Below, piece by piece: positions 1-30,778 of a stretch of DNA of 33,295 nt (the stretch's first letter is position 1; each line of letters opens with the position of its first letter). Where the stretch lies: the NCBI GenBank assembly GCA_014874385.1, contig JACWAE010000077.1:1-33295 (forward strand), in the 5' to 3' direction. Made by a program: the position numbers and the translations under genes. Under the pieces are notes generated by a model that was not told the DNA's origin, did no database searches, and saw nothing but the letters and a program-made list of their open reading frames with translations. This DNA is from Dehalococcoidia bacterium (GTDB taxonomy: Bacteria; Chloroflexota; Dehalococcoidia; SZUA-161).

Positions 1-522
1 CCTGACTTTCTGCCCCACGAAGACATCAGTTGGCGCAGTTACTATCTGGATGGGCAGAGCTGTATCAGCACCGTCGATTTGAACATATCCCATCACAAAT
101 GGCAGCATCTCCAGAAAAGCATCCGCCGAAAAAAGCATCACTGAAAATGTGTGCACTTTGCCTTTCAGCGGTAATTCTATCCACTTCGTTTCAGCAACCC
201 TGCATTTTGGATTCCAGCAGTGGACTCTGGGCGGACAATACACTGTCTTGCACACGGGACATTTCGTGCCAAACAGCGTCTTATCTATCAGCCCCTTGAA
301 GAACTTTGAGACCAGGCCATAGCTGTGGTGATAGAGTACACCGTGAGGCCGATATATGACCATAAAATCTTTTTCTTCAGCGTCTTCGATTTTCCCCGGG
401 CCAGAAAGAGCCCTCACTATTTCGTAACCTTTAACAGTCCAGTTGCCCTTCCTGGCGTACTCCTCCCATTCTTTTTTAATGGGTGTAGCTTTATCCTCTA
501 TTATTCTGACTTCATCTGTCAT
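1..522 (-). CDS. DUF35 zinc-ribbon/OB-fold acyl-CoA-binding protein 1, 3' end cut by window edge
   Basis: The reading frame is open from the ATG at 522 to the window edge (174 codons seen). GGAGG lies just upstream of the ATG. A rubredoxin-like zinc ribbon is visible (C88, C91, C102, C107, with the sequence CPVCKTVYCPPR), followed by an OB-fold-like stretch (VMGYVQIDGAD). DUF35 proteins bind acyl-CoA and partner thiolase-fold enzymes, as in archaeal HMG-CoA synthase/thiolase complexes and ChsH2 with Ltp2. It starts 16 bp after the stop of the thiolase-like gene at 539-1828, so the two probably form a complex. About 80 residues precede the ribbon, roughly twice the usual length, and include YRPHGVLYHH, which I do not recognise. 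The family call is secure; the partner and substrate are inferred. Confidence 0.85.
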   Translation of the reverse strand, partial: MTDEVRIIEDKATPIKKEWEEYARKGNWTVKGYEIVRALSGPGKIEDAEEKDFMVIYRPHGVLYHHSYGLVSKFFKGLIDKTLFGTKCPVCKTVYCPPRVHCWNPKCRVAETKWIELPLKGKVHTFSVMLFSADAFLEMLPFVMGYVQIDGADTALPIQIVTAPTDVFVGQKVR

Positions 523-538
523 CTTACTACCTCCGAAG

Positions 539-1828
539 CTAATCTTTAGAGTAAATGATTACCCCGCCCTGACAGCCCGTTCCCCCATGCCCCGTGGTGA
601 TAGCCTTCTTAGCTTTCTTCACCTGAAGCGTCGGATCACCTAGTTTCTTCCGAATCAATCCCGCCAGTTGCCAGTATAAAAAGAGGGTCTGGAGCAGCGA
701 TGTCGCGCCCACTGGATGTGTGAAGGCCGTTAGGCCGCCACTGAGCTGGCAGGGAAGTTCACCACCACGCTCTACCACACCCTCCCGAATCAGTGTCTTG
801 CCCTCGCCCCGGCGACAAAACATGAGGTCTTCATACAGGCAAAGCTCCACACCATCATACGGGGCAAATAGCTCCGCTAAATCTATCTCCTTCAACGGGT
901 TCCTGATGCCAGCCTGAGCATAAGCTTGTTTCGCTGCCTCCCTGGCAAACCCGAAATTAGCCATTTCAGGATACGGTGTTATGGGTTTTTCGACGTTCGG
1001 TGGATATATCTTTTCCTCTGCCTTATACACGCCGTGATATGCCCAGTCCACCAGCCTGTCTCCAGGCCTCATCGAATCGGTCCCCATACCTACCCCATCA
1101 ATCCACATCGGATTGTTTGAATATTTCTTTGCCACCTTCTCCGAACCCATCAAAAGGCAACAGGCACCCTCGCTGATCAGAGCACAATCCCACCTGCGAT
1201 AAGGCCAGGCTATTATCCTGTCCTTGTAGTAATCATCGAGTGTAACATAGCCTGTACCATGCTCCGCTCTCCATTGGGAATATGGATTATGTACGGCATT
1301 GTTGCGATTTTTGACTGCAATCCTGCCCAGGTCCTCTATCGTCTCGCCATATAGCTGCATATGCCGGGTCTCCAGCGCAGCATAATAGCCATTATAAAAG
1401 CCGCCTACAGTGAAATCCCAGTCCGTGTCTGAGGCAGAAGCTATGAACTCGTTGGTGGTAGCAGTGTCTACTTCTGACATCCATTCCCAACCTACCACCA
1501 ATATAAGGTCGAACTGCCCTGATTTGATAAGGAAATATGCATTGATAATGGCATCCAACGGTGTGCTTCCACCCCCCTCAATCCGGTAACCACCTTTTCT
1601 ATGCTGTCCGATGTAATCCTGGACTATCCATGCCATACATAGTTGCTGATTCAGGTGATCGCTGAAATAGCTGCTTTGTACGAACTCTATTTCTTGTGGG
1701 TCTAGATTTGGGAAGTCATTGAGCATATTCTTATATGCCATGGCAACGCCTTCTTCCGCATTATCATATCGCACCCTGCCCGGCCTATAGAGTCCGCCTC
1801 CCAGGATAGCTACACGCCTATCATTCAT
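539..1828 (-). CDS. Thiolase-fold (SCP2/Ltp2-like) protein 1, probable acyl-CoA aldolase, no nucleophilic Cys
   Basis: This 429-residue protein has the SCP2-thiolase architecture. The segment that normally carries the acylated Cys reads EGGGSTPLDAI, so Gly87 sits at the Cys position. Later landmarks are the FTHPVGATS loop, which keeps the His, and a C-terminal HGGTGCQGG loop with a Cys. Thiolase homologues without the nucleophile that pair with DUF35 include Ltp2, which cleaves beta-hydroxyacyl-CoA by a retro-aldol reaction, so an aldolase or other carbon-carbon lyase role is more likely than classical thiolysis. The start ATG has GGAGGT upstream. It lies 21 bp after the acyl-CoA dehydrogenase at 1850 and 16 bp before a DUF35 gene. 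Confidence 0.85.
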   Translation of the reverse strand: MNDRRVAILGGGLYRPGRVRYDNAEEGVAMAYKNMLNDFPNLDPQEIEFVQSSYFSDHLNQQLCMAWIVQDYIGQHRKGGYRIEGGGSTPLDAIINAYFLIKSGQFDLILVVGWEWMSEVDTATTNEFIASASDTDWDFTVGGFYNGYYAALETRHMQLYGETIEDLGRIAVKNRNNAVHNPYSQWRAEHGTGYVTLDDYYKDRIIAWPYRRWDCALISEGACCLLMGSEKVAKKYSNNPMWIDGVGMGTDSMRPGDRLVDWAYHGVYKAEEKIYPPNVEKPITPYPEMANFGFAREAAKQAYAQAGIRNPLKEIDLAELFAPYDGVELCLYEDLMFCRRGEGKTLIREGVVERGGELPCQLSGGLTAFTHPVGATSLLQTLFLYWQLAGLIRKKLGDPTLQVKKAKKAITTGHGGTGCQGGVIIYSKD

Positions 1829-1849
1829 AAAACACCTCCTCGTCGTCGA

Positions 1850-2983
1850 TTAGAGACCTAACTCTTGCGCCACGATGGCACGCTGAAAAGCGCCATCTCC
1901 AAATATTATCTCGCCCGCCTTAGCTCTTCTATAATAGAGATGTAAATCGTGGTCCATGGTGAAGCCTACAGCACCGAATATCTGATGAGCCAGCAGTGTC
2001 ACCCGGCTAAAGGCAGCACCTGTCCAAGCCTTGGCAATGGCTACGTCCATAGCAGCAGGCAGCCCCTCTGATACTTTCCACGCCGCTTTGTAGGTGACGA
2101 ACCGTGAGCCGTCGACATCGCTCACCATATTAGCACAGTAATGCTGAATCGCCTGGAAACTGCCTATAGGGCGGTTAAATTGAACCCTCTCTTTAGCATA
2201 GGCGACAGCCATATCCAGCGCGGCTTGTGCCCCTCCAACCATCTCGGCACACTTGGCCACTACGGCCTTCTGTAAGACATCCTGCATGATTTGCCAGCCC
2301 CGGTTCAGACCGCCCACTATGTTTTCCTTGGGGACAGCTACATTTTCAAACACCACTTCGCACTGCTTATCGCGGGCTAAAGTCTTCAGCAGCGTAAGTT
2401 TAATTCCAGGAGTCTTGGAATCGACCAGGAAAATTGTGACCCCGTTTTCCGGTTTCCCCCTTGCCTTTGTTTTAGCCACACACAGTAAGTAATCAGCAAC
2501 ATTGGCATCATGCACAAAGAGCTTCGTTCCATTTATAACATACTTGCCATCGCGAGCAGCCGCAGTGGTCTTGATAGATGCTGCATCATATTTAGCGCTG
2601 GCTTCGGTCAGCGCTAGACTGAGGACACGCTTGCCGTTGGCAATTTCAGAAAGCAATCCTTTCTTTTGCTCTTCGTTTCCCGCAGCCATTATAGTCATGC
2701 CGCCAAGGACAACAGTTGAGAAGAATGGTCCGGGGACGATGTTATATCCCATAGCCTCGAGCAGCACAACCAGGTCCAGGAAACTGCCGCCACCGCCTCC
2801 GTATTTCTCTGGAAATGGCAATCCCATCCACCCCAGCTCCGCCATCTTGCGCCACAGCTCCGGTGAATAGCCCTCATCGCTCTCGTCGAGTTGTTTCACC
2901 AGCTTCTTGGGACATTCTTTCTGTAAGAAATCGCGTGCCGACGTCCTCAGCATTTCCTGCTCTTCGCTCAATCCGAAGTCCAT
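1850..2983 (-). CDS. Acyl-CoA dehydrogenase family protein 1, probable non-catalytic partner subunit
   Basis: This is a 377-residue FAD-dependent acyl-CoA dehydrogenase homologue (N-terminal FGLSEEQEMLR, middle-domain LALTEASAKYDAASI, C-terminal RVQFNRPIGSFQAIQH). The two known positions for the catalytic Glu are both changed. The MCAD-type site reads IIFGDGAFQR, with Phe where Glu belongs. The IVD-type site reads LQKAVVAK instead of LDxER. Subunits of this kind occur in the heterotetrameric mycobacterial enzymes such as ChsE1-ChsE2, where one partner supplies the base. The ATG at 2983 follows TGGAGG; a TTG at 3001 is also in frame but lies upstream of that site. It sits 47 bp downstream of a sister dehydrogenase that keeps the IVD-type Glu, its likely partner. 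Confidence 0.85.
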   Translation of the reverse strand: MDFGLSEEQEMLRTSARDFLQKECPKKLVKQLDESDEGYSPELWRKMAELGWMGLPFPEKYGGGGGSFLDLVVLLEAMGYNIVPGPFFSTVVLGGMTIMAAGNEEQKKGLLSEIANGKRVLSLALTEASAKYDAASIKTTAAARDGKYVINGTKLFVHDANVADYLLCVAKTKARGKPENGVTIFLVDSKTPGIKLTLLKTLARDKQCEVVFENVAVPKENIVGGLNRGWQIMQDVLQKAVVAKCAEMVGGAQAALDMAVAYAKERVQFNRPIGSFQAIQHYCANMVSDVDGSRFVTYKAAWKVSEGLPAAMDVAIAKAWTGAAFSRVTLLAHQIFGAVGFTMDHDLHLYYRRAKAGEIIFGDGAFQRAIVAQELGL

Positions 2984-3030
2984 CTTCAGCCTCCAGTTCA
3001 AGAATCAAAAGGTCAGAGTTTGCGTAATGC

Positions 3031-4233
3031 TCAGCTACCACCCCAAGGCAGGCCTAACCCCCTGATCGCAATGATGCTACGCTGGATCTCGGACGTGCCA
3101 GCACCAACAAGCCCGGAAATGCAATCGAGATATCCTGTGCATATCCTGCCTTTCAAAGGTGCCCACTTGGCGTCCCTCTCCAGTTCACCGTACGGCCCCA
3201 TGACGTCTACTGCTGTGTTTGCCAGTTTACGGCTCAACTGGGTGGCGACCAGTTTGAGCACAGAGGCTTCGATATTCGGTACAAGGCCCCGGTCAAGCAT
3301 CCAGGCGGTTTGCCAGAAGAACATGTAGGCTACATCAATATCTATTGCCAGATCAGCCAGCTTATCGCGTATCAGTGGCTCATCGGTCAATGTCTCTCCA
3401 TTGCGCTTAGTTTCCGCGGCCCACTGCACCAATTCCTCGAAAGTTCGCTTGAAGCCCCCTACAGGCACTACAAGCCTCTCAAAGTCCAGGGCTGCCATGG
3501 CATAATACCAACCCCTGTTTCGCTCACCGATAATGTTCCTTTGGGGTATCCTGACATTATCGAAGAAGACCTCATTAAAGGAATGGAAACCACAAATATT
3601 TATCAGTGGGCTAATGGTGATACCCTCCGACTTGTTATCCACGATAACCAAGGAAATACCTTTATGCGCGGGTGCATTGGGGTCTGTCCGAACCAGCATC
3701 CATGCGAAGTCAGAAACGTGCGCGCCGCTGCTCCACGTCTTCTGCCCATTGATTACAAGGTCGTCCCCGTCTTCCACTGCGCTCGTTTGAATAGAGGCCA
3801 AGTCAGAGCCTGCATTTGGTTCACTGTAAGCGAGCCAGAACCTGATATCCGCCCTCGCGATTTTAGGCAGCCACTCTCTCTTAGCTTCATCGCTGCCAAA
3901 CAGTAGGATGGTCGGGCCAGAAATCAGGGTGGCTACGCCAGGACCAGGTGCCCGGTGGTAGCTCAGGCGTTCATTGAAGATGGCCTGCTCCATACTGGAG
4001 CGTCCTGCGCCCCCGTATTCCCTGGGCCATGAGAGAGTTAGCCAGCCTTTCTCTGCCAACCGGCGTCTAAACCGTTCTGCCGCAGGGTCTAGTTCCTCGA
4101 AATCCGGTATAGTTCCGTATCCGCCAGGCCAGTAATGGCTCTCTTCTGCCCAGCTTGCAGGCAACTCCTTGTTTATAAAGTCGTCGACTTCTTGCCGAAA
4201 TGCTTCTTCCTGGCCGCTAAATTGAAAATCCAC
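3031..4233 (-). CDS. Acyl-CoA dehydrogenase 2, FadE type with IVD-style catalytic Glu
   Basis: This 400-residue protein has the acyl-CoA dehydrogenase fold: YSEPNAGSDLASIQT in the FAD-binding middle domain, and VGAGTSEIQR near the C-terminus. The MCAD-type base position is Ala, but LDFER (Glu252) matches the isovaleryl-CoA dehydrogenase base site, so it should be catalytic. It would insert an alpha-beta double bond into an acyl-CoA. The start is GTG at 4233 with AGAGG upstream. It is about half identical by eye to the next gene upstream (4273-5466), suggesting an old tandem duplication. FadE17/FadE26-like mycobacterial enzymes are the nearest family I recognise. Confidence 0.9.
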   Translation of the reverse strand: MDFQFSGQEEAFRQEVDDFINKELPASWAEESHYWPGGYGTIPDFEELDPAAERFRRRLAEKGWLTLSWPREYGGAGRSSMEQAIFNERLSYHRAPGPGVATLISGPTILLFGSDEAKREWLPKIARADIRFWLAYSEPNAGSDLASIQTSAVEDGDDLVINGQKTWSSGAHVSDFAWMLVRTDPNAPAHKGISLVIVDNKSEGITISPLINICGFHSFNEVFFDNVRIPQRNIIGERNRGWYYAMAALDFERLVVPVGGFKRTFEELVQWAAETKRNGETLTDEPLIRDKLADLAIDIDVAYMFFWQTAWMLDRGLVPNIEASVLKLVATQLSRKLANTAVDVMGPYGELERDAKWAPLKGRICTGYLDCISGLVGAGTSEIQRSIIAIRGLGLPWGGS

Positions 4234-4272
4234 AGTTTCCTCTAAACAACAGTTACAGCAATTAGTAACAGG

Positions 4273-5466
4273 CTATTGCTGGCGGGGCAATCCCAGTCCC
4301 CTCATAGCCACAATGTTACGTTGAATCTCATTCGTGCCGCCGCCCACGCCTATGGAGATGCAGCTCAAATAGGTGCGCATTGCCCTGCCATTAAAGACAG
4401 CACATTTGGAGTCCTGGCCCAACTCACCGTAGTGTCCGAGAACTCGCATTCCTACATTTGCTATACGTCTCAGCAATTCGCTGGAAAATAGCAATGACAT
4501 TGAGGACTCATAGCTAGGATGAAGTCCCTTACTGTACATCCAGGCAATGCGGTAGCACATCATACGCAGAACCTCATCCTCCACTGCCAGCTCTGCTAAT
4601 TCGTCTTTAATTAAAGTGTCATCGCCAAGACTATTGCCGGAGCGTTTGGCTTCCTTCACATACTGTATTAGTTCCTCGATGAGGCACTGGTTTGCAGCGG
4701 CTGTGCCAATCAGGGAGCGCTCGAAGTCCAGCGCCATAGCAAGCTGATACCAGCCCTTATTTTTTTCGCCTATCAAAGCATCCTTAGGGACACGCACATC
4801 ATCAAGAAAGACTTCATTGAAGGAATGCCGGTTCAAAATATTTATCAGAGGCCTGACGGTTATACCCGGGGTCTTCATGTCGATAACGAACATGCTTATT
4901 CCTTTGTGCTTAGGCACATTGGGGTCGGTTCTCGCGCCCAGCCAGCAATAGTTAGCATAATGCGCATAGCTGCACCAAATCTTCTGTCCATTTATCACCC
5001 AGCTATCGCCGTCCTCCACAGCGCGCGTTTGAATAGAGGCCAGGTCTGAGCCGGAGTTGGGCTCACTATAGCCAAGACAGAAGCATGATTCCCCCTTCGC
5101 CACCTCGGTAAGATATTTTTTCTTTTGCTGCTCAGTGCCAAAGAGCGAGATGGCACCTCCCACCCAGTTCACAGATATCTCCATCTCAACGCCTACCGGA
5201 GCCTTGTGGTAATACAACTCTTCGGCAAGTATCAGCCGTTTAACGTGGCTCATATCCGAGCCCCCATACTCCTTGGGATATGCCGGTGCCAGCCATCCCT
5301 TCTGCCCCAGTTTGCGCTGGAACTCGCGTAAAAGCGTCCATGACTCCTCGGTCTCTTCCCATAGCCCGACATCAATCTCATGCCACCGCGGTGGAACGGT
5401 CTCCTTAAGCCACTGTCTTACCTCCTGACGGAACGCCTCTTCTGCTTCCGAAAATCTGAAATCCAT
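4273..5466 (-). CDS. Acyl-CoA dehydrogenase 3, FadE type with IVD-style catalytic Glu
   Basis: This is a 397-residue paralogue of the gene at 3031-4233. It shares YSEPNSGSDLASIQT, HSFNEVF and the C-terminal GTNEIQR, with GLGLP at the end. Gly occupies the MCAD-type base position, while LDFER (Glu249) retains the isovaleryl-CoA dehydrogenase-type base. I chose the ATG at 5466 because a GGGGGTG ribosome site precedes it; the in-frame ATG at 5478 overlaps that site and has none of its own. It is 27 bp from the DUF35 gene upstream and 39 bp from its paralogue downstream, so all are co-transcribed. It may work alone or with the base-less subunit at 1850-2983. Confidence 0.9.
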   Translation of the reverse strand: MDFRFSEAEEAFRQEVRQWLKETVPPRWHEIDVGLWEETEESWTLLREFQRKLGQKGWLAPAYPKEYGGSDMSHVKRLILAEELYYHKAPVGVEMEISVNWVGGAISLFGTEQQKKKYLTEVAKGESCFCLGYSEPNSGSDLASIQTRAVEDGDSWVINGQKIWCSYAHYANYCWLGARTDPNVPKHKGISMFVIDMKTPGITVRPLINILNRHSFNEVFLDDVRVPKDALIGEKNKGWYQLAMALDFERSLIGTAAANQCLIEELIQYVKEAKRSGNSLGDDTLIKDELAELAVEDEVLRMMCYRIAWMYSKGLHPSYESSMSLLFSSELLRRIANVGMRVLGHYGELGQDSKCAVFNGRAMRTYLSCISIGVGGGTNEIQRNIVAMRGLGLPRQQ

Positions 5467-5493
5467 AAGCACCCCCATACTTTGAGGCTGTCT

Positions 5494-5976
5494 TTACGTG
5501 CCATCGATAATCTTGAAATGGTCGATATCGTGGAAATAATCGCCTGTCCTCTTATCGCTGAAAACTGCCTGCAAGCGCATCCCCGCTTTTATCTTCTTCT
5601 CGTCAGTCTCATCCAAGCAGTGCACAATGTTGGAATCAGCGCCATCGAGCTTAATAAATGCTGCGGTGAAAGGGATTCTCTTCGGTTCACCAGTGGTTGT
5701 GTCAATATAAGAGAAGTTGGTTACCGTAAAGGCAAGCAGCGTACCTTTATCGCTAACAGCTACAAATTCCTCCATCTTAACGAAGCAGTCCCGACACACA
5801 ATACGCGGAGGCACGTAGACCTTACCACACTTGGGACACTTAACCCCTACTATACGCTTGTTGTCCCTTAACTCACGGAGAAAACGGCTGTAGTAATAAC
5901 CAGCATGGTATTTATAGGGCATATCTGCTATGTATTTTATGCTGAGCGGTTTTGAGACTTCTTTCCCATGTTCCAT
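5494..5976 (-). CDS. DUF35 zinc-ribbon/OB-fold acyl-CoA-binding protein 2
   Basis: This 160-residue protein has the usual DUF35 length and layout: an N-terminal helix region (YYSRFLRELRDNKRIVG), a rubredoxin-like zinc ribbon (CPKCGKVYVPPR then CRDC), and an OB-fold (GTLLAFTVTNF, FTAAFIKLDGADSNIVH). The ATG has GGAG 8 nt upstream. It begins 14 bp after the stop of the thiolase-like gene at 5991, so it is that protein's likely partner. DUF35 proteins channel or bind CoA thioesters for thiolase-fold enzymes; direct catalysis by this subunit is not expected. Confidence 0.92.
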   Translation of the reverse strand: MEHGKEVSKPLSIKYIADMPYKYHAGYYYSRFLRELRDNKRIVGVKCPKCGKVYVPPRIVCRDCFVKMEEFVAVSDKGTLLAFTVTNFSYIDTTTGEPKRIPFTAAFIKLDGADSNIVHCLDETDEKKIKAGMRLQAVFSDKRTGDYFHDIDHFKIIDGT

Positions 5977-5990
5977 AGCTTGCGCTCCAT

Positions 5991-7157
5991 TCAGTCCAAT
6001 CGAGGCAGTGAGCTGAGCACGGTAACATCTGACCAGAAACAGCCGCCGAATCCGGTGGCTACAGCTACCTTCGCGCCCTCTACCTGCTTCTTCTCCGCTT
6101 TCCCCATCACCTGCAAGGCAGCTTCACCTATCCTTAAGAGCCCTGTTGCGCCGATGGGATTCGTTGCCAGTACGCCGCCTGAGGGATTAATAGGCAGTTT
6201 TCCTCCCATGTTGGTGACGCCGCTCCTGATCAGCCCGGGTCCCCCTCCCTCCTCACACATCCCTAAAGCCTCCATCCAGCTAACCCCTGCTGTTGACGCA
6301 GGTACGTATAATTCAGCAACGTCGATTTGATTGAACGGGTCAGTAATGCCAGCCATCTCATAGGCCTCATGCGCAGCGATCTCCAGAGACGGCAGGTTTG
6401 CCAGTCCAATCCCATCTGCTAGATGAACCAGTATATGACAATCACCAACGCCAAGTATCCAGGCAGGTCGTTCGGCTATCCTCCTGGCTTTTTTCTCAGA
6501 GGCGAATATGACGGCGCAGGCGCCATCGGTCCTGGGACACATATCAAGCAGCTTTATGGGATAAGATATGTAGGCAGACTTCATCACATCTTCCACAGTA
6601 ATGGTCTGCCGCAGGTGAGCGTATGGATTGTACAACGCTGCATTATTATGGTCTCTTACCGAAACGAGCGCTGCATCCTCTTCTGTCGCTCCGTATTTGC
6701 TCATATAAGCTATATACTGAGCTGCTAGAGGCCCTATCGCGCCGGCGCAGTACTCTCTCTCGGTAAAAGGGTCGAAGCAGGTCGATATCGCTGCTGTGGT
6801 GTCCGATTCGGAATTTTGCTCCCAGCCGATAACCAGCACTGTGTCGAACAACCCTGAAGCCGCATGGTAAAAACCTGCATGCCCTATAGCACTGCCAGTT
6901 GTTCCTCCTGTGGTTACCTTCATAATGGGCTTCATATATCCGCCGGAGCCGTCCACGCTCCACATGTCCACATAGTTGATCGATTCGAAATGGTCCATGT
7001 TGCCAATCACTATCGCATCGATGTCTGCCATAGTCAGTTCGGCGTTCTCCAGAGCCCTCTTCACAGCAATACTGATCAATTCCTGACCATTACAGTCAGT
7101 ATTCTTGGACCTGTGATGGGTTTGTCCCACCCCTACTATTCCCACCCGTCTTCTCAC
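5991..7157 (-). CDS. Thiolase-fold (SCP2/Ltp2-like) protein 2, no nucleophilic Cys
   Basis: This 388-residue protein starts with RRRVGIVGVGQTHH, typical of SCP2-type thiolases. The nucleophile segment reads VTTGGTTGSAIG, putting Gly85 at the Cys position. The conserved HPxGATG loop reads TNPIGATG, so the His is replaced by Asn too, making normal thiolase chemistry very unlikely. The C-terminal loop GFGGCFWSD keeps a Cys. The best start is GTG at 7157, preceded by a G-rich stretch. It is flanked by another thiolase-like gene (37 bp upstream) and a DUF35 gene (14 bp downstream). The likely role is a lyase or acyl-CoA-binding partner in the same pathway. Confidence 0.87.
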   Translation of the reverse strand: MRRRVGIVGVGQTHHRSKNTDCNGQELISIAVKRALENAELTMADIDAIVIGNMDHFESINYVDMWSVDGSGGYMKPIMKVTTGGTTGSAIGHAGFYHAASGLFDTVLVIGWEQNSESDTTAAISTCFDPFTEREYCAGAIGPLAAQYIAYMSKYGATEEDAALVSVRDHNNAALYNPYAHLRQTITVEDVMKSAYISYPIKLLDMCPRTDGACAVIFASEKKARRIAERPAWILGVGDCHILVHLADGIGLANLPSLEIAAHEAYEMAGITDPFNQIDVAELYVPASTAGVSWMEALGMCEEGGGPGLIRSGVTNMGGKLPINPSGGVLATNPIGATGLLRIGEAALQVMGKAEKKQVEGAKVAVATGFGGCFWSDVTVLSSLPRLD

Positions 7158-7194
7158 TGAATATCGCCCCCTGGGTAGAATTGACAGCTAAATC

Positions 7195-8331
7195 CTATTT
7201 CCCCAGAATGAACACGCAGTGCCCCTGTCCACATGCACCTTCGATACCATGCGCCAGAGCTGTGCTGGCTTCATCGACCTGCCTATCACCGGCTTCACCT
7301 CTAAGCTGCAGCACTGCCTCCGCAATGCGGGCCAGCCCAGCTACTTGAACTGCGTGTGCTGACAGAACCCCTCCCGATGGATTTACAGGCAAAGAGCCGC
7401 CCATCTCCGTCAGGCCAGAATCGACCATAGCACCGGCCTTGCCCCGATCGCAGAATCCCAGCCCCTCCATCCACATAAGTTCCATGTACGAGAAGGCATC
7501 ATAAACCTCAGCTACGTGTATTTGCTTCAATGGGGTATGAACACCAGCCATGTTATATGCTCGCTTAGCTGCTGAGGTTAGCGCATCCACTTCAGCAAGG
7601 TCGCGGTCTCCCAGGTGATATGCGTCGGCACAGTGCCCGACCCCCTTTATCCAGATAGGCTTTTTATGCTTTTTCTTCGCTGTTCTCTCCCGCGCCATGA
7701 TAATGGCGCAGGCCCCATCTGAGATGGGGGACGTGTCGAGTAGCTTTATCGGGTCGGCCAGCACCTTCGATTTCAGCACATCCTCGACCGTAATATCCAT
7801 TGGCAGATGTGCGTAGGGATTAGCCCTGGCATTTTTGCGATTCTTAACCGAGACCTTCGCGCATTGCTCCTTGGTAACCCCGTATTTGGACATATAGCTC
7901 CTCATTTGAAGAGCTGCTGAATTTATCGCATCGAGCCCTAACATGCGCTCGTAGACAGGATCAAACATGGCATTCGTGATTATTGATGGTATTCCCTCTG
8001 AGATTTTGCTTTGTGCCACAACCAGGGTTATCTCATGCAGGCCGGAAAGGAGACGCATGAGCCCCATCAATGCACCATACGTGCCGTCTCCCTCTACATT
8101 GGTGGTGGGAGATTTATGAGAACCGGTGGCTTCCGTAATTGTCATGGAAGAGATAGTTCGGCCATCCCAAAAATCGTTGCAGACCGTGATAGTATTATCT
8201 ATATCATCGATCGTTAGTCCAGCGTCTTCCAGTGCTTTGCACGTTACCTCGTAAGCTAACTCAGCATGAGACGCAGGATTATATCTCTGGTACTTTGTTT
8301 GAGCTACTCCTATGATGCCGACCTTCTCCAA
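7195..8331 (-). CDS. Thiolase-fold (SCP2/Ltp2-like) protein 3, no nucleophilic Cys
   Basis: This 378-residue SCP2-thiolase homologue has MEKVGIIGVAQTKYQR at the N-terminus. The nucleophile region reads VEGDGTYGALMG, with Gly83 in place of Cys. The later loop reads SAHAVQVAG: His is kept but the GATG part is lost. It ends GIEGACGQGHCVFILGK. The start is a TTG at 8331 with TAGGAG 7 nt upstream; no better ATG is available because the conserved N-terminal strand begins right there. It sits between the DUF35 gene at 8362 and the second thiolase-like gene at 5991. I infer an aldolase-type complex with the upstream DUF35 protein. Confidence 0.87.
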   Translation of the reverse strand: MEKVGIIGVAQTKYQRYNPASHAELAYEVTCKALEDAGLTIDDIDNTITVCNDFWDGRTISSMTITEATGSHKSPTTNVEGDGTYGALMGLMRLLSGLHEITLVVAQSKISEGIPSIITNAMFDPVYERMLGLDAINSAALQMRSYMSKYGVTKEQCAKVSVKNRKNARANPYAHLPMDITVEDVLKSKVLADPIKLLDTSPISDGACAIIMARERTAKKKHKKPIWIKGVGHCADAYHLGDRDLAEVDALTSAAKRAYNMAGVHTPLKQIHVAEVYDAFSYMELMWMEGLGFCDRGKAGAMVDSGLTEMGGSLPVNPSGGVLSAHAVQVAGLARIAEAVLQLRGEAGDRQVDEASTALAHGIEGACGQGHCVFILGK

Positions 8332-8361
8332 ACTCTTGCTCCTATTTCAACCTTCCACTGC

Positions 8362-8838
8362 TCAGGCTCTGATTGGCTTGAAATATTTGATGTCGAGGTA
8401 ATTGCCCTCCCTCACTTCACGGAAAACCGCTTTGACTCTTAAGCCAACAGAAATATCATTCAAGTCTATTTCACCCAGCAGGTGTACCAATCCAGTACTT
8501 GCACCGTCCAACTTTATGATACCTAGGGCGAATGGTGGCTCTAGAGGCTGGATACCTGGGACAGCGTACCTTGTTACGGTATAGGTCAACAATGTTCCTG
8601 TATCGCTGAGTTCCACCCATTCACGCATATCGCAGTAGCATCTGGGGCAAGTCTCCCTGGGAGGAACAAAAACCCATGCACATTTGGGACACTTGATACC
8701 CCAGATTTTACAATTGTCTTTTATCTCCTGATAAAATCTGCTTCCCACCTTCCCTACATGCCAAGTATAGGGAAGCCTGATTCGACTCGGGTAAATCAAA
8801 GTCCCTGTGTTGCCGAGTTCTTCACTTTGTACTGACAT
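8362..8838 (-). CDS. DUF35 zinc-ribbon/OB-fold acyl-CoA-binding protein 3
   Basis: This is a 158-residue DUF35 protein with a zinc ribbon (CPKCAWVFVPPR, CPRC) and an OB-fold (GTLLTYTVTRY, FALGIIKLDGAS, VHLLGEI). The ATG at 8838 has TAGGAG 9 nt upstream; an in-frame TTG at 8847 directly abuts that site and is rejected. It follows the MaoC gene by 18 bp. In actinobacterial ChsH2 a MaoC domain and a DUF35 domain are fused in one chain, so this order looks like the unfused equivalent. It precedes the thiolase-like gene at 7195-8331. Confidence 0.92.
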   Translation of the reverse strand: MSVQSEELGNTGTLIYPSRIRLPYTWHVGKVGSRFYQEIKDNCKIWGIKCPKCAWVFVPPRETCPRCYCDMREWVELSDTGTLLTYTVTRYAVPGIQPLEPPFALGIIKLDGASTGLVHLLGEIDLNDISVGLRVKAVFREVREGNYLDIKYFKPIRA

Positions 8839-8856
8839 TGCTGGCAACTCCTAATA

Positions 8857-9291
8857 TCAGGCTGCAGGCTTTTTGGCAATTAATACTTTGATGGTAGAGA
8901 TTGCCACGTTTTCGCCTCTCTGGTTCTTAACCGACTGCTTCAGACTTACCGTGCCTCCTATGTCGCCTTTGTCCTGTTTTTCTGTAACCTCTAGCTCCAC
9001 ATGTATGGTGTCGCCTATCTTTGTTGGTGCAGTAAATCTTAACTTGTCCATGCCGTAGAAAGCAACAATTGCCATCTCATATAGTGGCATCAGCCCGATA
9101 GCAAATGAAATTACCAACATCCCATGAGCTATCCTCTCGCCAAAAGGGCCTTTTTTGGCATATTCTATGTCGGTATGAAGTGGATACCAATCACCAGTCA
9201 AGGCAGCAAAATTGACTATATCTGCTTCGGTAATAGTCCTCGCCCTGGTTACGGCTACTTCCCCAACGTTAAAATCTTCAAAGTATTTCAT
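8857..9291 (-). CDS. MaoC-like (R)-specific enoyl-CoA hydratase
   Basis: This 144-residue single hot-dog-fold protein carries the hydratase-2 motif: D34 and H39 in GDWYPLHTD, followed by FGERIAHGML. It should add water across the trans-2-enoyl-CoA made by the downstream acyl-CoA dehydrogenases. The ATG at 9291 has GGAG 8 nt upstream (AGAAGGAGTAAGC); an in-frame ATG at 9309 would overlap the preceding remnant and lacks a site, so I chose 9291. It is the first intact gene of the operon. The lack of any 3-hydroxyacyl-CoA dehydrogenase nearby suggests its hydroxyacyl-CoA product is cleaved directly. Confidence 0.92.
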   Translation of the reverse strand: MKYFEDFNVGEVAVTRARTITEADIVNFAALTGDWYPLHTDIEYAKKGPFGERIAHGMLVISFAIGLMPLYEMAIVAFYGMDKLRFTAPTKIGDTIHVELEVTEKQDKGDIGGTVSLKQSVKNQRGENVAISTIKVLIAKKPAA

Positions 9292-9302
9292 GCTTACTCC
9301 TT

Positions 9303-9430
9303 CTACCAATTTACCTTGTCCAGGCCCCTGAGGCCCAGAATCCGCCTGGCTTCGTCGGGAGTCGCGGGGTCAATGCTCAACTGACGCGCAATTGCGACAA
9401 TCCTCTCCGCCTGTTTCGCATTGTTGGCTG
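9303..9430 (-). pseudogene. Remnant resembling the C-terminus of a beta-keto acid cleavage enzyme (BKACE/DUF849)
   Basis: About 40 codons (PANNAKQAERIVAIARQL, then ATPDEARRILGL) resemble the last helix and tail of the 3-keto-5-aminohexanoate cleavage enzyme family, which normally runs to about 270-300 residues. The frame stays open upstream to 9530, but the residues there look unlike the family, and the segment contains the operon promoter. I see no family-like sequence further upstream. It ends 11 bp before the maoC start. It is probably debris of a gene once at the head of this operon. The family assignment rests on a short tail motif only. Confidence 0.4.
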
Positions 9431-29391: not shown

Positions 29392-30703
29392 TTACCCTCC
29401 CCCCAGCAGACACTTCCGAATCCTGATGTGGGGGCTGCCGTTGGAGACGGGCAGCGGCATCTGGCCTCCCTTGCCACAGCCGCCGCCCTGGTTCATGTCC
29501 AGGTCGTTGCCGATGGCGTCTATGTTCTCCAGCGTGGTGAACAGGTTGCCGCTGAGCTGCACCGGACGCAGCATCTCCGCTATCTTGCCATTGCGTATCA
29601 TATAGGCTTCGCCTGCGGAGAATGTGAACATCTCCATGCTGGTCATGCCGCCGTACCAGTTCTTGCAGTAGACGCCCTCCTTAATCTCGGAGATAAGCTC
29701 CTCGAAGGAGGCTTTGCCCGGCTCAATGAAGGTATTGGTCATGCGCACGATGGGCTGGAAGGTGTAGTTCAACGCCCTGGCGTTGCCCGTGACAGCCTCG
29801 CCCATCTTGGCCGCCGTCTCCCGGGAATGCAGCCGGCCCACCAGCACACCCTCTTTGATCAGATACGTCATGGTCGAGCGTACGCCCTCGTCATCGTATT
29901 TATAGCTGCCGCGCAACCCCGGGACGGCTGCGCCGTCCACGATGTTTAGGTGCTTGCCGCCGAACTTACGGCCCAGTACCATGATCTCACGCATGCGCTC
30001 GTTTTCGTAGACAAAGTCCGATTCGGAGAGATGCCCGAAGGCTTCATGGGCCCTTGAGCTGAGGAGCTTTGAGCAGCTCCACAGAGCGCCGCGCCATCTG
30101 CTCCACATCCTTGTGCAGGTTTTCGATGAAGCCATAGTCTCCATTGCTGCCCAGGCTCAGCCCGGACTGCTGTACGTTTGAGCCGTCGCGCGCCACGGCG
30201 TTGAACCTCGCCGTGAGGTCCACCTTGCTCTGCTCTATATAGGTGCCCTCGGAATTGGCGAAAATTACCTTCTTGCGGCCATCGCCGTAGCCGATGGTGG
30301 AGGTCTGGATATGGGGCACGCTCCAGATAACCTCGTTGTACCGGTCGAGTAGCTCTTTCTTTCTCGCCAGCGGTATTGAGGCAGGGTCTTTCTTCACCTG
30401 GGGCGGCACTATATCCACCACGGGCTCGACAGCGGCGAGCTTGCTCTCTTCCCTTCCCACCAGCCTCGCCTGCTTCACCGCAATCTCTACCTTCTCTCTT
30501 AAGCCAGAGATGTTATTAAACGAGATAAACCCCCAGCCCCCTTTGACCAGAGCGCGCACATTACCGCCCAGGCTGGTGGTCCTGCCGATGTCCTCCAGCT
30601 CCCGCCCGCGGTACTGGATGCGGGTTGCGTCGCCTTCCTCAATTCGAATCTCGATGTAATCAGCGTTGTGTCCCTTTAGTGCCTTCTCAATCTCGTCACG
30701 CAT
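29392..30703 (-). pseudogene. tldD: tldD, broken by a deletion and frameshift before the HExxxH motif
   Basis: The N-terminal half (frame from the ATG at 30703, GGAGGG upstream) is a normal TldD domain up to SVELLKAPQLKGP, then stops at about 30044. The C-terminal half continues in another frame with the zinc motif HEAFGHLSE and runs normally to a typical GGG end (CLLGGG). In TldD about 14-16 residues (a strand containing VV and GV before HEA) separate these segments; here they are missing, and the frame is off. A single-base sequencing error cannot explain the missing residues. The partner PmbA is intact at 21642-22946. Confidence 0.85.
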
Positions 30704-30778
30704 CAGATTTTCCCTCCGGTTAAGGTTATGGGTGGCTTGGAGTCCGTAACGTCGCCACTCCCATAGAAACGAACCCAC

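What the first reader, a model, noticed from the sequence alone, without database searches (positions are those of the whole stretch)
1..9291. Operon with three Cys-less thiolase/DUF35 pairs: a candidate aldolytic acyl-CoA chain-shortening system
Seen: three SCP2-thiolase homologues (539-1828, 5991-7157, 7195-8331) all have Gly at the nucleophilic Cys position (G87, G85, G83), and each lies in the same operon as a DUF35 protein. The operon adds a MaoC hydratase and three acyl-CoA dehydrogenases but no 3-hydroxyacyl-CoA dehydrogenase in the part visible. Known: Ltp2 with ChsH2-DUF35 cleaves a 3-hydroxyacyl-CoA by retro-aldol during steroid side-chain degradation, so no oxidation to the keto form is needed. 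Inference: this operon removes carbons from a branched, sterol-like or other hindered acyl-CoA by repeated aldol cleavage. Three pairs in one non-actinobacterial operon would be unusual.
Basis: partly seen in the sequence, partly recalled or inferred. Interest (0 to 1): 0.75.

Follow-up and report, generated by a model that had tools for sequence, protein, structure and literature searches.

The report
Two-subunit acyl-CoA aldolase operon in Chloroflexota
An operon of a likely Chloroflexota bacterium encodes three thiolase-like proteins that all lack the catalytic cysteine; two of them are relatives of a sterol-degrading aldol-lyase pair of actinobacteria and are predicted to form one two-part enzyme that would cut branched acyl-CoA chains by aldol cleavage.

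Summary
In detail: all three SCP2-thiolase homologues have Gly at the nucleophile position (G87, G85, G83), and the ten genes run on one strand with gaps of 9-39 nt. The reading "three thiolase/DUF35 pairs" does not hold. T3 and T2 are adjacent sister clades: T2 groups with actinobacterial Ltp3, T3 contains Ltp4. With DUF35 proteins D3 and D2 they form one cassette; T2 follows T3 in 30 of 30 testable cases, in bacteria and archaea. Ltp3-Ltp4 is reported as the aldol-lyase for C24-branched sterol side chains, so an aldolytic function is supported by homology but untested. T2 is the likely catalytic subunit (Tyr284-x-Pro286 and Asn333 in 120 of 120 closest homologues); T3 varies there. T1-D1 is a separate Cys-less family of unclear activity. 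[quoted passage not shown] same-family genomes have BKACE, acyl-CoA carboxylase and hydratase genes in this operon, and one relative fuses BKACE to DUF35. Verdict: a new variant of a known aldol-lyase kind, with a testable BKACE-coupled branch-removal route.

The parts
9306..9425 (-). 3' remnant of a BKACE (beta-keto acid cleavage enzyme) gene, 40 codons, ending at the MaoC start
   Evidence: tblastn 80% identical over 40 aa to the C-terminal end of intact BKACE1 in L033; Pfam BKACE match 9330-9428
8857..9309 (-). M: MaoC-type enoyl-CoA hydratase (ATG at 9291, TTG at 9309)
   Evidence: PF01575, E 1e-29
8362..8847 (-). D3: DUF35 protein (CPKC...CPRC), partner of the T3/T2 cassette
   Evidence: PF12172/PF01796; in a 19-row clade of D3-type proteins, support 96; cysteines
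7195..8331 (-). T3: Cys-less thiolase-like subunit, in the clade with Ltp4; motif YDAF; G83
5991..7157 (-). T2: Cys-less thiolase-like subunit, in the clade with Ltp3, likely catalytic; G85, Y284-x-P286, N333
   Evidence: AlphaFold model pLDDT 87, pTM 0.91
5494..5976 (-). D2: DUF35 protein (CPKC...CRDC), directly downstream of T2
   Evidence: PF12172/PF01796
4273..5478 (-). A3: acyl-CoA dehydrogenase (48% identical to A2)
   Evidence: identity; nearest NCBIfam PimC large, below cut-off
3031..4233 (-). A2: acyl-CoA dehydrogenase
1850..3001 (-). A1: acyl-CoA dehydrogenase
539..1828 (-). T1: separate Cys-less thiolase-like family (nearest NCBIfam PRK06365, 340.9 bits of 695); G87, FAPY at the HDCF site, H371, H414
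   Evidence: AlphaFold model pLDDT 85.7
1..522 (-). D1: DUF35 protein, cut by the contig end; last 66 residues at G000:C68:1-198

Best explanation
T2 and T3, with the DUF35 proteins D2 and D3, likely form one heteromeric Ltp3/Ltp4-type aldol-lyase that is predicted to cleave a 3-hydroxyacyl-CoA, probably beta-branched, into acetyl- or propionyl-CoA and a carbonyl product, with no oxidation to the 3-keto form. Shown here: no nucleophilic Cys in either protein; one conserved cassette; T2 clusters with Ltp3, and T3 in a clade that contains Ltp4. Inferred: T2 carries the chemistry, with Tyr284 as the base taking the proton from the 3-hydroxyl (the place of Tyr294 in TcLtp2 and Tyr302 in CtSal), Asn333 helping at the site of the thiolase GHP histidine, and the backbone at G85 binding the oxygen. 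T3 would be a partner subunit that has lost the catalytic residues in many lineages. Also inferred: A1-A3 make the enoyl-CoA and MaoC hydrates it. In the fuller operon of relatives, a carboxylase/hydratase route would make the aldol product a beta-keto acid, which BKACE plus acetyl-CoA would turn into a shorter acyl-CoA and acetoacetate. In this genome that arm is eroded here, but one intact BKACE sits beside another T3/T2 cassette. T1-D1 is a separate Cys-less unit, possibly releasing an aldehyde.
For: Gly at the nucleophile site in T1, T2 and T3. Tree of 63 proteins: T2+Ltp3 one clade (support 99), T3+Ltp4 one clade (99), the two sister (99), apart from Cys thiolases (99) and Ltp2 (100). T2 immediately follows T3 in 30 of 30 testable T3 genes; 2 more had no room. 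Distances of 19 T3/T2 pairs correlate, r 0.84, 0 of 5000 permutations as high. Closest T2 homologues, the window's own included: Gly, Tyr-x-Pro and Asn in 120 of 120; invariant also in 30 aligned sequences including actinobacterial and archaeal ones. T3-clade rows show Y, S, C, T, F or H at the Tyr site. Gene order double DUF35, Ltp4-like, Ltp3-like beside steroid genes in Tsukamurella, matching Rv3521, Rv3522 (ltp4), Rv3523 (ltp3) in PMC6429209. Heteromeric Ltp3-Ltp4 aldol-lyase, acting after carboxylation of the branch and hydration, described in PMC6678751. Predicted T2 fold matches thiolase-DUF35 complexes including 6ok1, 7pxp and 9myr. BKACE: remnant in the window, intact beside the C68 cassette, two copies in the L033 operon, fused to DUF35 in L047.
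Against: No activity is known for these proteins. T2 lacks the second Tyr of TcLtp2 and the Cys of CtSal, so the acid is not identified. The window T3 keeps YDAF, so T3 could also be active. A 3-hydroxyacyl-CoA dehydrogenase gene follows D1 on contig C68, so part of the pathway may oxidise a hydroxyacyl-CoA. A same-genus genome (G001) lacks the T3/T2 cassette in this operon, with a 30-residue D2 remnant left, so the cassette is not always needed. BKACE was not found in 5 of 16 same-class genomes searched (G007, G012, G043, G054, G057), all of which have T2, and in 5 more with both (G001, G004, G008, G038, G052) the two are not near each other. The operon carboxylase scores closer to propionyl-CoA carboxylases (423 bits for the best group) than to methylcrotonyl- (276) or geranyl-CoA carboxylase (252). 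T2 and T3 fall under the NCBIfam cut-offs of the actinobacterial families.
Confidence: 0.66

Rival explanations
1. T1-D1 is a second, independent aldolase of the operon that works like Sal or Ltp2 and releases an aldehyde, which an aldehyde:ferredoxin oxidoreductase oxidises. It would be compatible with the main reading.
For: Gly at the nucleophile in 118 of 118 T1 homologues with a letter at that column, of 120 examined. In G004 D1 is followed by an SCP2-domain protein, an Fe-alcohol dehydrogenase and an aldehyde:ferredoxin oxidoreductase (AOR) on the same strand. G000 has SCP2, Fe-ADH and AOR genes together on contig C12. T1, D1, A1-A3 and M stay together in G001, which lacks the T3/T2 cassette here.
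Against: T1 has Phe, not Tyr, at the catalytic base position (FAPY). What follows D1 differs in each genome: 3-hydroxyacyl-CoA dehydrogenase (G000), CoA-transferase (G001), the AOR set (G004), only an unassigned ORF on the other strand (G002).
Confidence: 0.35
2. T3, not T2, is the catalytic subunit, because the window T3 has YDAF, closest to YDHF of Ltp2 and YDCY of Sal.
For: T3 motif YDAF with His326 in the window, and YDAF in near relatives.
Against: The Tyr is lost in the T3 proteins of the other three cassettes of the same genome (Ser), in Cupriavidus (Thr), in second cassettes of L043 and L047 (Cys) and in the Ltp4-like proteins (His), while T2 keeps Tyr and Asn in 120 of 120.
Confidence: 0.15
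3. The three proteins are not aldolases: they are inactive or acyl-handling scaffolds of an ordinary beta-oxidation operon, and a Cys thiolase elsewhere in the genome does the cleavage.
For: 12 of 26 full-length SCP2-type thiolase-fold proteins compared in this genome have the Cys; a 3-hydroxyacyl-CoA dehydrogenase gene follows D1.
Against: Strict conservation of Tyr-x-Pro and Asn in T2, conserved pairing, and homology to Ltp3/Ltp4, reported as essential for C24-branched sterol side-chain degradation (title of the primary paper, seen only as a reference).
Confidence: 0.16

Closest known systems
Ltp3-Ltp4 with the Rv3521-type double DUF35 protein (actinobacterial C24-branched sterol side-chain aldol-lyase)
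   Same: Two adjacent Cys-less thiolase-like subunits in sister clades plus two DUF35 domains; T2 and Ltp3-like proteins share Gly, Tyr-x-Pro and Asn.
   Different: T2 is about 40% and T3 about 28% identical to the Tsukamurella and Streptomyces proteins, under the NCBIfam cut-offs. DUF35 proteins are separate genes. Setting: likely Dehalococcoidia, with BKACE and acyl-CoA carboxylase genes in the operon of relatives. That Rv3521 itself is a double DUF35 is my inference from the Tsukamurella and Streptomyces loci.
Ltp2-ChsH2 aldolase (TcLtp2, 6ok1)
   Same: Thiolase fold with DUF35 partner, Gly at the nucleophile; T2 and T3 have Tyr at the His site of HDCF.
   Different: Ltp2 is a separate clade (support 100), with YDHF and a second Tyr where T2 has Asn; T1, T2 and T3 score 91, 146 and 184 bits against PRK07855 (cut-off 469).
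Sal-Shy aldolase (CtSal, 9myr)
   Same: Cys-less at the nucleophile, Tyr base, DUF35 partner.
   Different: CtSal needs the Cys of YDCY (PMC12329534, abstract and passages); T2 has YVPA.
Benzoylsuccinyl-CoA thiolase BbsAB (7pxp)
   Same: Thiolase-DUF35 assembly; that it serves an anaerobic beta-oxidation-like pathway is recalled.
   Different: Window proteins reach 101-150 bits against BbsB (cut-off 750). BbsB was not in my tree.

Membership tests
Ltp3/Ltp4 heteromeric aldol-lyase | Two adjacent thiolase-like subunits in two sister clades that hold Ltp3 and Ltp4 | tested here: met
   Tree of 63 rows, supports 99/99/99; adjacency 30 of 30 testable. The names Ltp3/Ltp4 for the Tsukamurella and Streptomyces proteins are mine, by gene order and homology; the records call them thiolase domain-containing proteins.
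Ltp3/Ltp4 heteromeric aldol-lyase | Score over the NCBIfam cut-offs of the actinobacterial families (PRK08313, PRK07937) | tested here: not met
   T2 342.6 bits against 514; T3 163.2 against 419; the Tsukamurella and Streptomyces pairs pass. Hence filed as a variant, not as a member of the actinobacterial families.
Ltp3/Ltp4 heteromeric aldol-lyase | DUF35 partner domains encoded alongside | tested here: met
   D2 and D3, separate genes; double DUF35 in the two actinobacterial loci
Ltp3/Ltp4 heteromeric aldol-lyase | Aldol cleavage of a C24-branched sterol side chain | not testable with these tools
   Needs enzyme assay
SCP2-type thiolase | Nucleophilic Cys and HDCF motif | tested here: not met
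   Gly in T1, T2, T3; FAPY, YVPA, YDAF
Ltp2-type aldolase | YDHF with a second catalytic Tyr; PRK07855 cut-off | tested here: not met
   No Tyr at the second site in T1-T3; at most 184.3 bits against 469
Sal-type aldolase | YDC[YF] with catalytic Cys | tested here: not met
   No Cys at that site in T1-T3
Benzoylsuccinyl-CoA thiolase BbsAB | NCBIfam BbsA/BbsB cut-offs | tested here: not met
   BbsB 101-150 bits against 750; BbsA 25-27 bits against 250 for D2 and D3, D1 no match
BKACE | Full-length match to Pfam PF05853 at window 9330-9428 | tested here: not met
   25.2 bits, just over the cut-off of 24.8, but profile positions 241-274 of 274 only; a remnant, not a gene

The most novel reading that the evidence does not exclude
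The fuller operon of this family encodes an undescribed, probably anaerobic route that removes beta-branches from isoprenoid or sterol-like acyl-CoAs. The branch is carboxylated, the enoyl-CoA is hydrated, a heteromeric thiolase-fold aldolase (T2/T3 with two DUF35 proteins) acts like an HMG-CoA lyase for large substrates and frees acetyl- or propionyl-CoA plus a beta-keto acid, and BKACE with acetyl-CoA turns that acid into a shorter acyl-CoA and acetoacetate without ATP. The chemistry would lie in the Ltp3-type subunit, with a Tyr-x-Pro/Asn site unlike the known Ltp2 and Sal dyads.
Probability: 0.27. Interest if true: 0.85.

Novelty: new variant of a known kind. Interest (0 to 1): 0.6.

Why it matters
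It places a heteromeric Cys-less aldol-lyase, known to me in print only from actinobacterial sterol degraders, in uncultured Chloroflexota (probably anaerobic, by my inference) and in Asgard archaea. It predicts which subunit is catalytic and with which residues. The BKACE fusion and operon give a testable idea of how a beta-branched chain could be shortened without a thiolase step and without spending ATP on CoA activation of the product.

Tried and rejected
Reading the operon as three like pairs: rejected, because T2/T3 are sister clades that travel together in 30 of 30 testable cases and T1 is a separate clade.

gamma-Carboxylation by a methylcrotonyl/geranyl-CoA-type carboxylase as the firm role of the operon carboxylase: not supported by its closest solved relatives, which are propionyl-CoA carboxylases and a methylmalonyl-CoA decarboxylase-like protein; kept only as part of the novel case. 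The same protein could instead serve released propionyl-CoA.

IpdAB ring-opening enzymes beside the operon in L053: rejected; the two CoA-transferase genes pass the NCBIfam cut-offs for 3-oxoacid CoA-transferase subunits A and B.

Promoter and terminator scan: numbers found are those of shuffled sequence (13 against 13.9; 8 against 9.1), so nothing is claimed from it.

Papers: four library searches touched Ltp3/Ltp4, DUF35 or heteromeric/heterodimeric thiolase, one Chloroflexi with aldolase/Ltp2/sterol degradation, one Dehalococcoidia with beta-oxidation and thiolase, one BKACE. In those listings, titles and abstract starts I saw no report of Ltp3/Ltp4-type cassettes in Chloroflexota or archaea; most listed papers were not opened, and subscription papers are not held. 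The primary Ltp3/Ltp4 paper (Wilbrink 2012) was not seen; I rely on papers that cite it.

Structure: AlphaFold models of T2 and T1. Only T2 was compared with solved structures by fold. No model of T3 or of a complex was made. The third protein-database search (for T3) was not used.
Full report
WHAT IS THERE. Ten genes lie on the minus strand between 9309 and 1, with gaps of 9-39 nt: MaoC hydratase (M), DUF35 (D3), thiolase-like T3, thiolase-like T2, DUF35 (D2), acyl-CoA dehydrogenases A3, A2 and A1, thiolase-like T1, and DUF35 (D1, cut by the edge) (Pfam). The labels are mine. The window is the start of contig C34 of a 2.8 Mb genome in 118 contigs, 95% complete with 6.4% contamination. The nearest named relatives of T3 carry the titles Chloroflexi or Dehalococcoidia; the genome itself has no name.

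THE CYS-LESS SITES. Aligned to solved thiolases, T1, T2 and T3 have Gly at residues 87, 85 and 83, where Cys-type thiolases have the nucleophile. At the HDCF site they read FAPY, YVPA and YDAF; at the GHP histidine they have His, Asn and His. In the paper on the bile-acid aldolase Sal (PMC12329534; abstract and passages read), Sal and Ltp2 have Gly at or near the oxygen-binding site that replaces the thiolase Cys and Tyr in place of the His of HDCF (YDHF in TcLtp2, YDCY in CtSal). T2 and T3 have that Tyr; T1 does not. Of 26 full-length SCP2-type proteins of this genome that I compared, 14 have Gly and 12 have Cys. Partial copies were left out.

NOT THREE PAIRS BUT ONE CASSETTE PLUS ONE PAIR. 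T2 and T3 are 42% identical; either is 30-31% identical to T1. In a tree of 63 proteins, T2 forms a clade with actinobacterial Ltp3-like proteins (support 99), T3 a clade that contains the Ltp4-like ones (99), and the two are sisters (99); T1 (95), Ltp2 (100) and the Cys thiolases (99) are separate. I searched 46 loci from named genome records, three contig stretches of this genome outside the window and three plasmid loci. Of 32 T3 genes that passed my threshold, T2 follows directly in 30, and in the other 2 the contig ends. The Ltp4-like genes of the two actinobacterial plasmid loci fall under that threshold and are not counted. Two DUF35 matches lie within 3.5 kb in 27 of the 32 cases and one in the other 5. 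In a tree of 47 DUF35 rows, 19 rows, D3 among them, form a clade (support 96); D3-type rows of the C68 kind lie outside it. Distances among 19 T3/T2 pairs correlate at r 0.84, with 0 of 5000 permutations as high; shared descent of the genomes contributes to this. The loci come from Chloroflexota, Actinomycetota, delta-type bacteria, Desulfobacteraceae, Freyarchaeota, Jordarchaeum and Lokiarchaeota, and Cupriavidus. This genome has four cassettes: the window, C38, C68 and C91.

LINK TO LTP3/LTP4. On a Tsukamurella plasmid a double-DUF35 protein, a 359-residue and a 390-residue thiolase-like protein are adjacent, within 8 kb of a cytochrome P450 and a 'steroid 3-ketoacyl-CoA thiolase'. This matches the order Rv3521, Rv3522 (ltp4), Rv3523 (ltp3) in the tables of PMC6429209 (passages). 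Other papers state that ltp3 and ltp4 encode aldol-lyases for C24-branched sterol side chains (passages: PMC6593523; PMC4761994; PMC7807495; PMC8708139). A review calls them a heteromeric aldol-lyase and proposes carboxylation of the branch, hydration, cleavage, and a need to thioesterify the product again (PMC6678751, passages). I did not see the primary paper. T2 and T3 score under the NCBIfam cut-offs of the actinobacterial families (342.6 of 514; 163.2 of 419), while the Tsukamurella and Streptomyces proteins pass. So I file the cassette as a variant of this kind.

WHICH SUBUNIT IS ACTIVE. The best 120 T2 homologues were returned, the window's own included, of 5857 found in a capped list of 8000 candidates; Gly, Tyr-x-Pro and Asn are present in 120 of 120. 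Among my own locus set, 35 of 36 rows labelled T2/Ltp3 keep Gly, Tyr and Asn; the exception falls among the Cys thiolases in the tree. In a set of 30 that includes Ltp3-like and archaeal sequences, G85, E282, Y284, P286 and N333 are invariant. In the T3 clade the same two sites vary: Tyr, Ser, Cys, Thr, Phe or His, and His, Asn, Asp, Ile, Val, Lys or Cys. I infer that T2 is the catalytic subunit, with Tyr284 as base, and that T3 is a partner that can lose the site. The general acid is not identified. The model of T2 (pLDDT 87, pTM 0.91) matches thiolase structures including those with DUF35 partners: 6ok1 (TM 0.79-0.80 by the query's length), 7pxp (0.82-0.84), 9myr (0.80); ordinary thiolases score as high or higher, so the fold does not decide the reaction.

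THE OPERON IN RELATIVES. In same-family genomes the order, pieced together from several contigs, is BKACE1-M-D3-T3-T2-D2-carboxyltransferase-ECH-BKACE2-A3-A2-A1-T1-D1. No single contig shows it all: L033 runs from BKACE1 to A1, and G002:C199 from ECH to D1. In the window, BKACE1 is reduced to a 40-codon 3' remnant that abuts MaoC, 80% identical to the intact gene, and the carboxyltransferase-ECH-BKACE2 stretch is missing between D2 and A3. In same-genus genome G001 the T3/T2 cassette is missing instead, with a 30-residue D2 remnant between A3 and M. In G008 there is no T1 after A1. So the operon has been pruned in different ways, assembly errors aside. T1 is found in 4 of 60 genomes searched at a strict threshold (E 1e-100), this one included, all of the same family.

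BKACE. This genome has two BKACE matches, the window remnant and one intact gene beside the C68 cassette. Under random placement, two of two within 3 kb of a cassette would have a chance of about 0.0002; this was computed after the fact with my choice of distance. In locus L047 one DUF35 protein is fused to BKACE and the other to an SCP2 sterol-carrier domain, directly after a T3/T2 pair. Genes for CoA-transferases of the 3-oxoacid type, which would activate acetoacetate, lie near cassettes in L032, L051 and L053; only the L053 pair was tested against NCBIfam. Against this: I searched 16 genomes of the same class, the eight others of the family and eight more with T2. BKACE is in 11 of them; the 5 without it all have T2. 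It lies within 20 kb of a listed T2 in G002, G003, G005, G024 and G029, but not in G001, G004, G008, G038 or G052, where contig breaks may hide links except in the one-contig G008; G006 has BKACE but no T2 at the threshold used. BKACE enzymes turn a beta-keto acid plus acetyl-CoA into an acyl-CoA and acetoacetate (passages: PMC6365646; PMC10470551). The coupled route is therefore an inference, valid at most for part of the family.

BEYOND THE LEFT EDGE. The last 66 residues of D1 begin contig C68 (80% identical to the G004 protein). Judged against the G001 protein, about three residues are missing between the contig ends. On C68 a 3-hydroxyacyl-CoA dehydrogenase (371-1384) and a family III CoA-transferase (1399-2610) follow on the same strand, the first about 170 nt after D1. 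No Cys thiolase was found among the larger ORFs of the first 8 kb. What follows D1 differs between genomes: a CoA-transferase in G001; SCP2, Fe-alcohol dehydrogenase and aldehyde:ferredoxin oxidoreductase in G004. The last set would suit an aldehyde product of T1-D1.

VERDICT. The Cys-less observation is right. The aldolytic reading is supported for T2/T3 by homology to Ltp3/Ltp4 and by residue conservation, and stays untested. T1-D1 is a distinct Cys-less family with no firm assignment. The substrate is unknown; beta-branched isoprenoid or sterol-like acyl-CoAs are the best guess, from the Ltp3/Ltp4 homology and the SCP2 and BKACE neighbours.

Noticed in passing
G000:C38 (L107): One contig carries two Ltp2-type proteins (one over, one just under the NCBIfam cut-off), DUF35 genes beside them, and a complete T3-T2-D2-D3 cassette; the genome has three matches over the Ltp2-type cut-off, on C4, C38 and C107.
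   Followed up: partly
L047:2307-4925: Two fusion proteins after a T3/T2 pair: SCP2 sterol-carrier domain with a DUF35 zinc ribbon, and DUF35 OB fold with BKACE.
   Followed up: partly
window 29392-30778: A TldD-like metalloprotease gene is split into two overlapping frames on the minus strand; frameshift or assembly error, left as is.
   Followed up: no
L109:10993-12039 (G000:C91): A histone-deacetylase-fold protein follows the C91 cassette, 368 nt after D3.
   Followed up: no
G000:C12:8500-16000 (L194): SCP2-domain protein, Fe-alcohol dehydrogenase (75% identical to the G004 gene) and aldehyde:ferredoxin oxidoreductase together on the same strand.
   Followed up: partly
L032:8016-8171: A weak BKACE match (46% over 52 residues) just before MaoC, perhaps another eroded BKACE1.
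   Followed up: no
L064, L068, L069 (Lokiarchaeota): A T1-like protein, a BKACE and a T3/T2 cassette lie within about 8 kb of each other.
   Followed up: no
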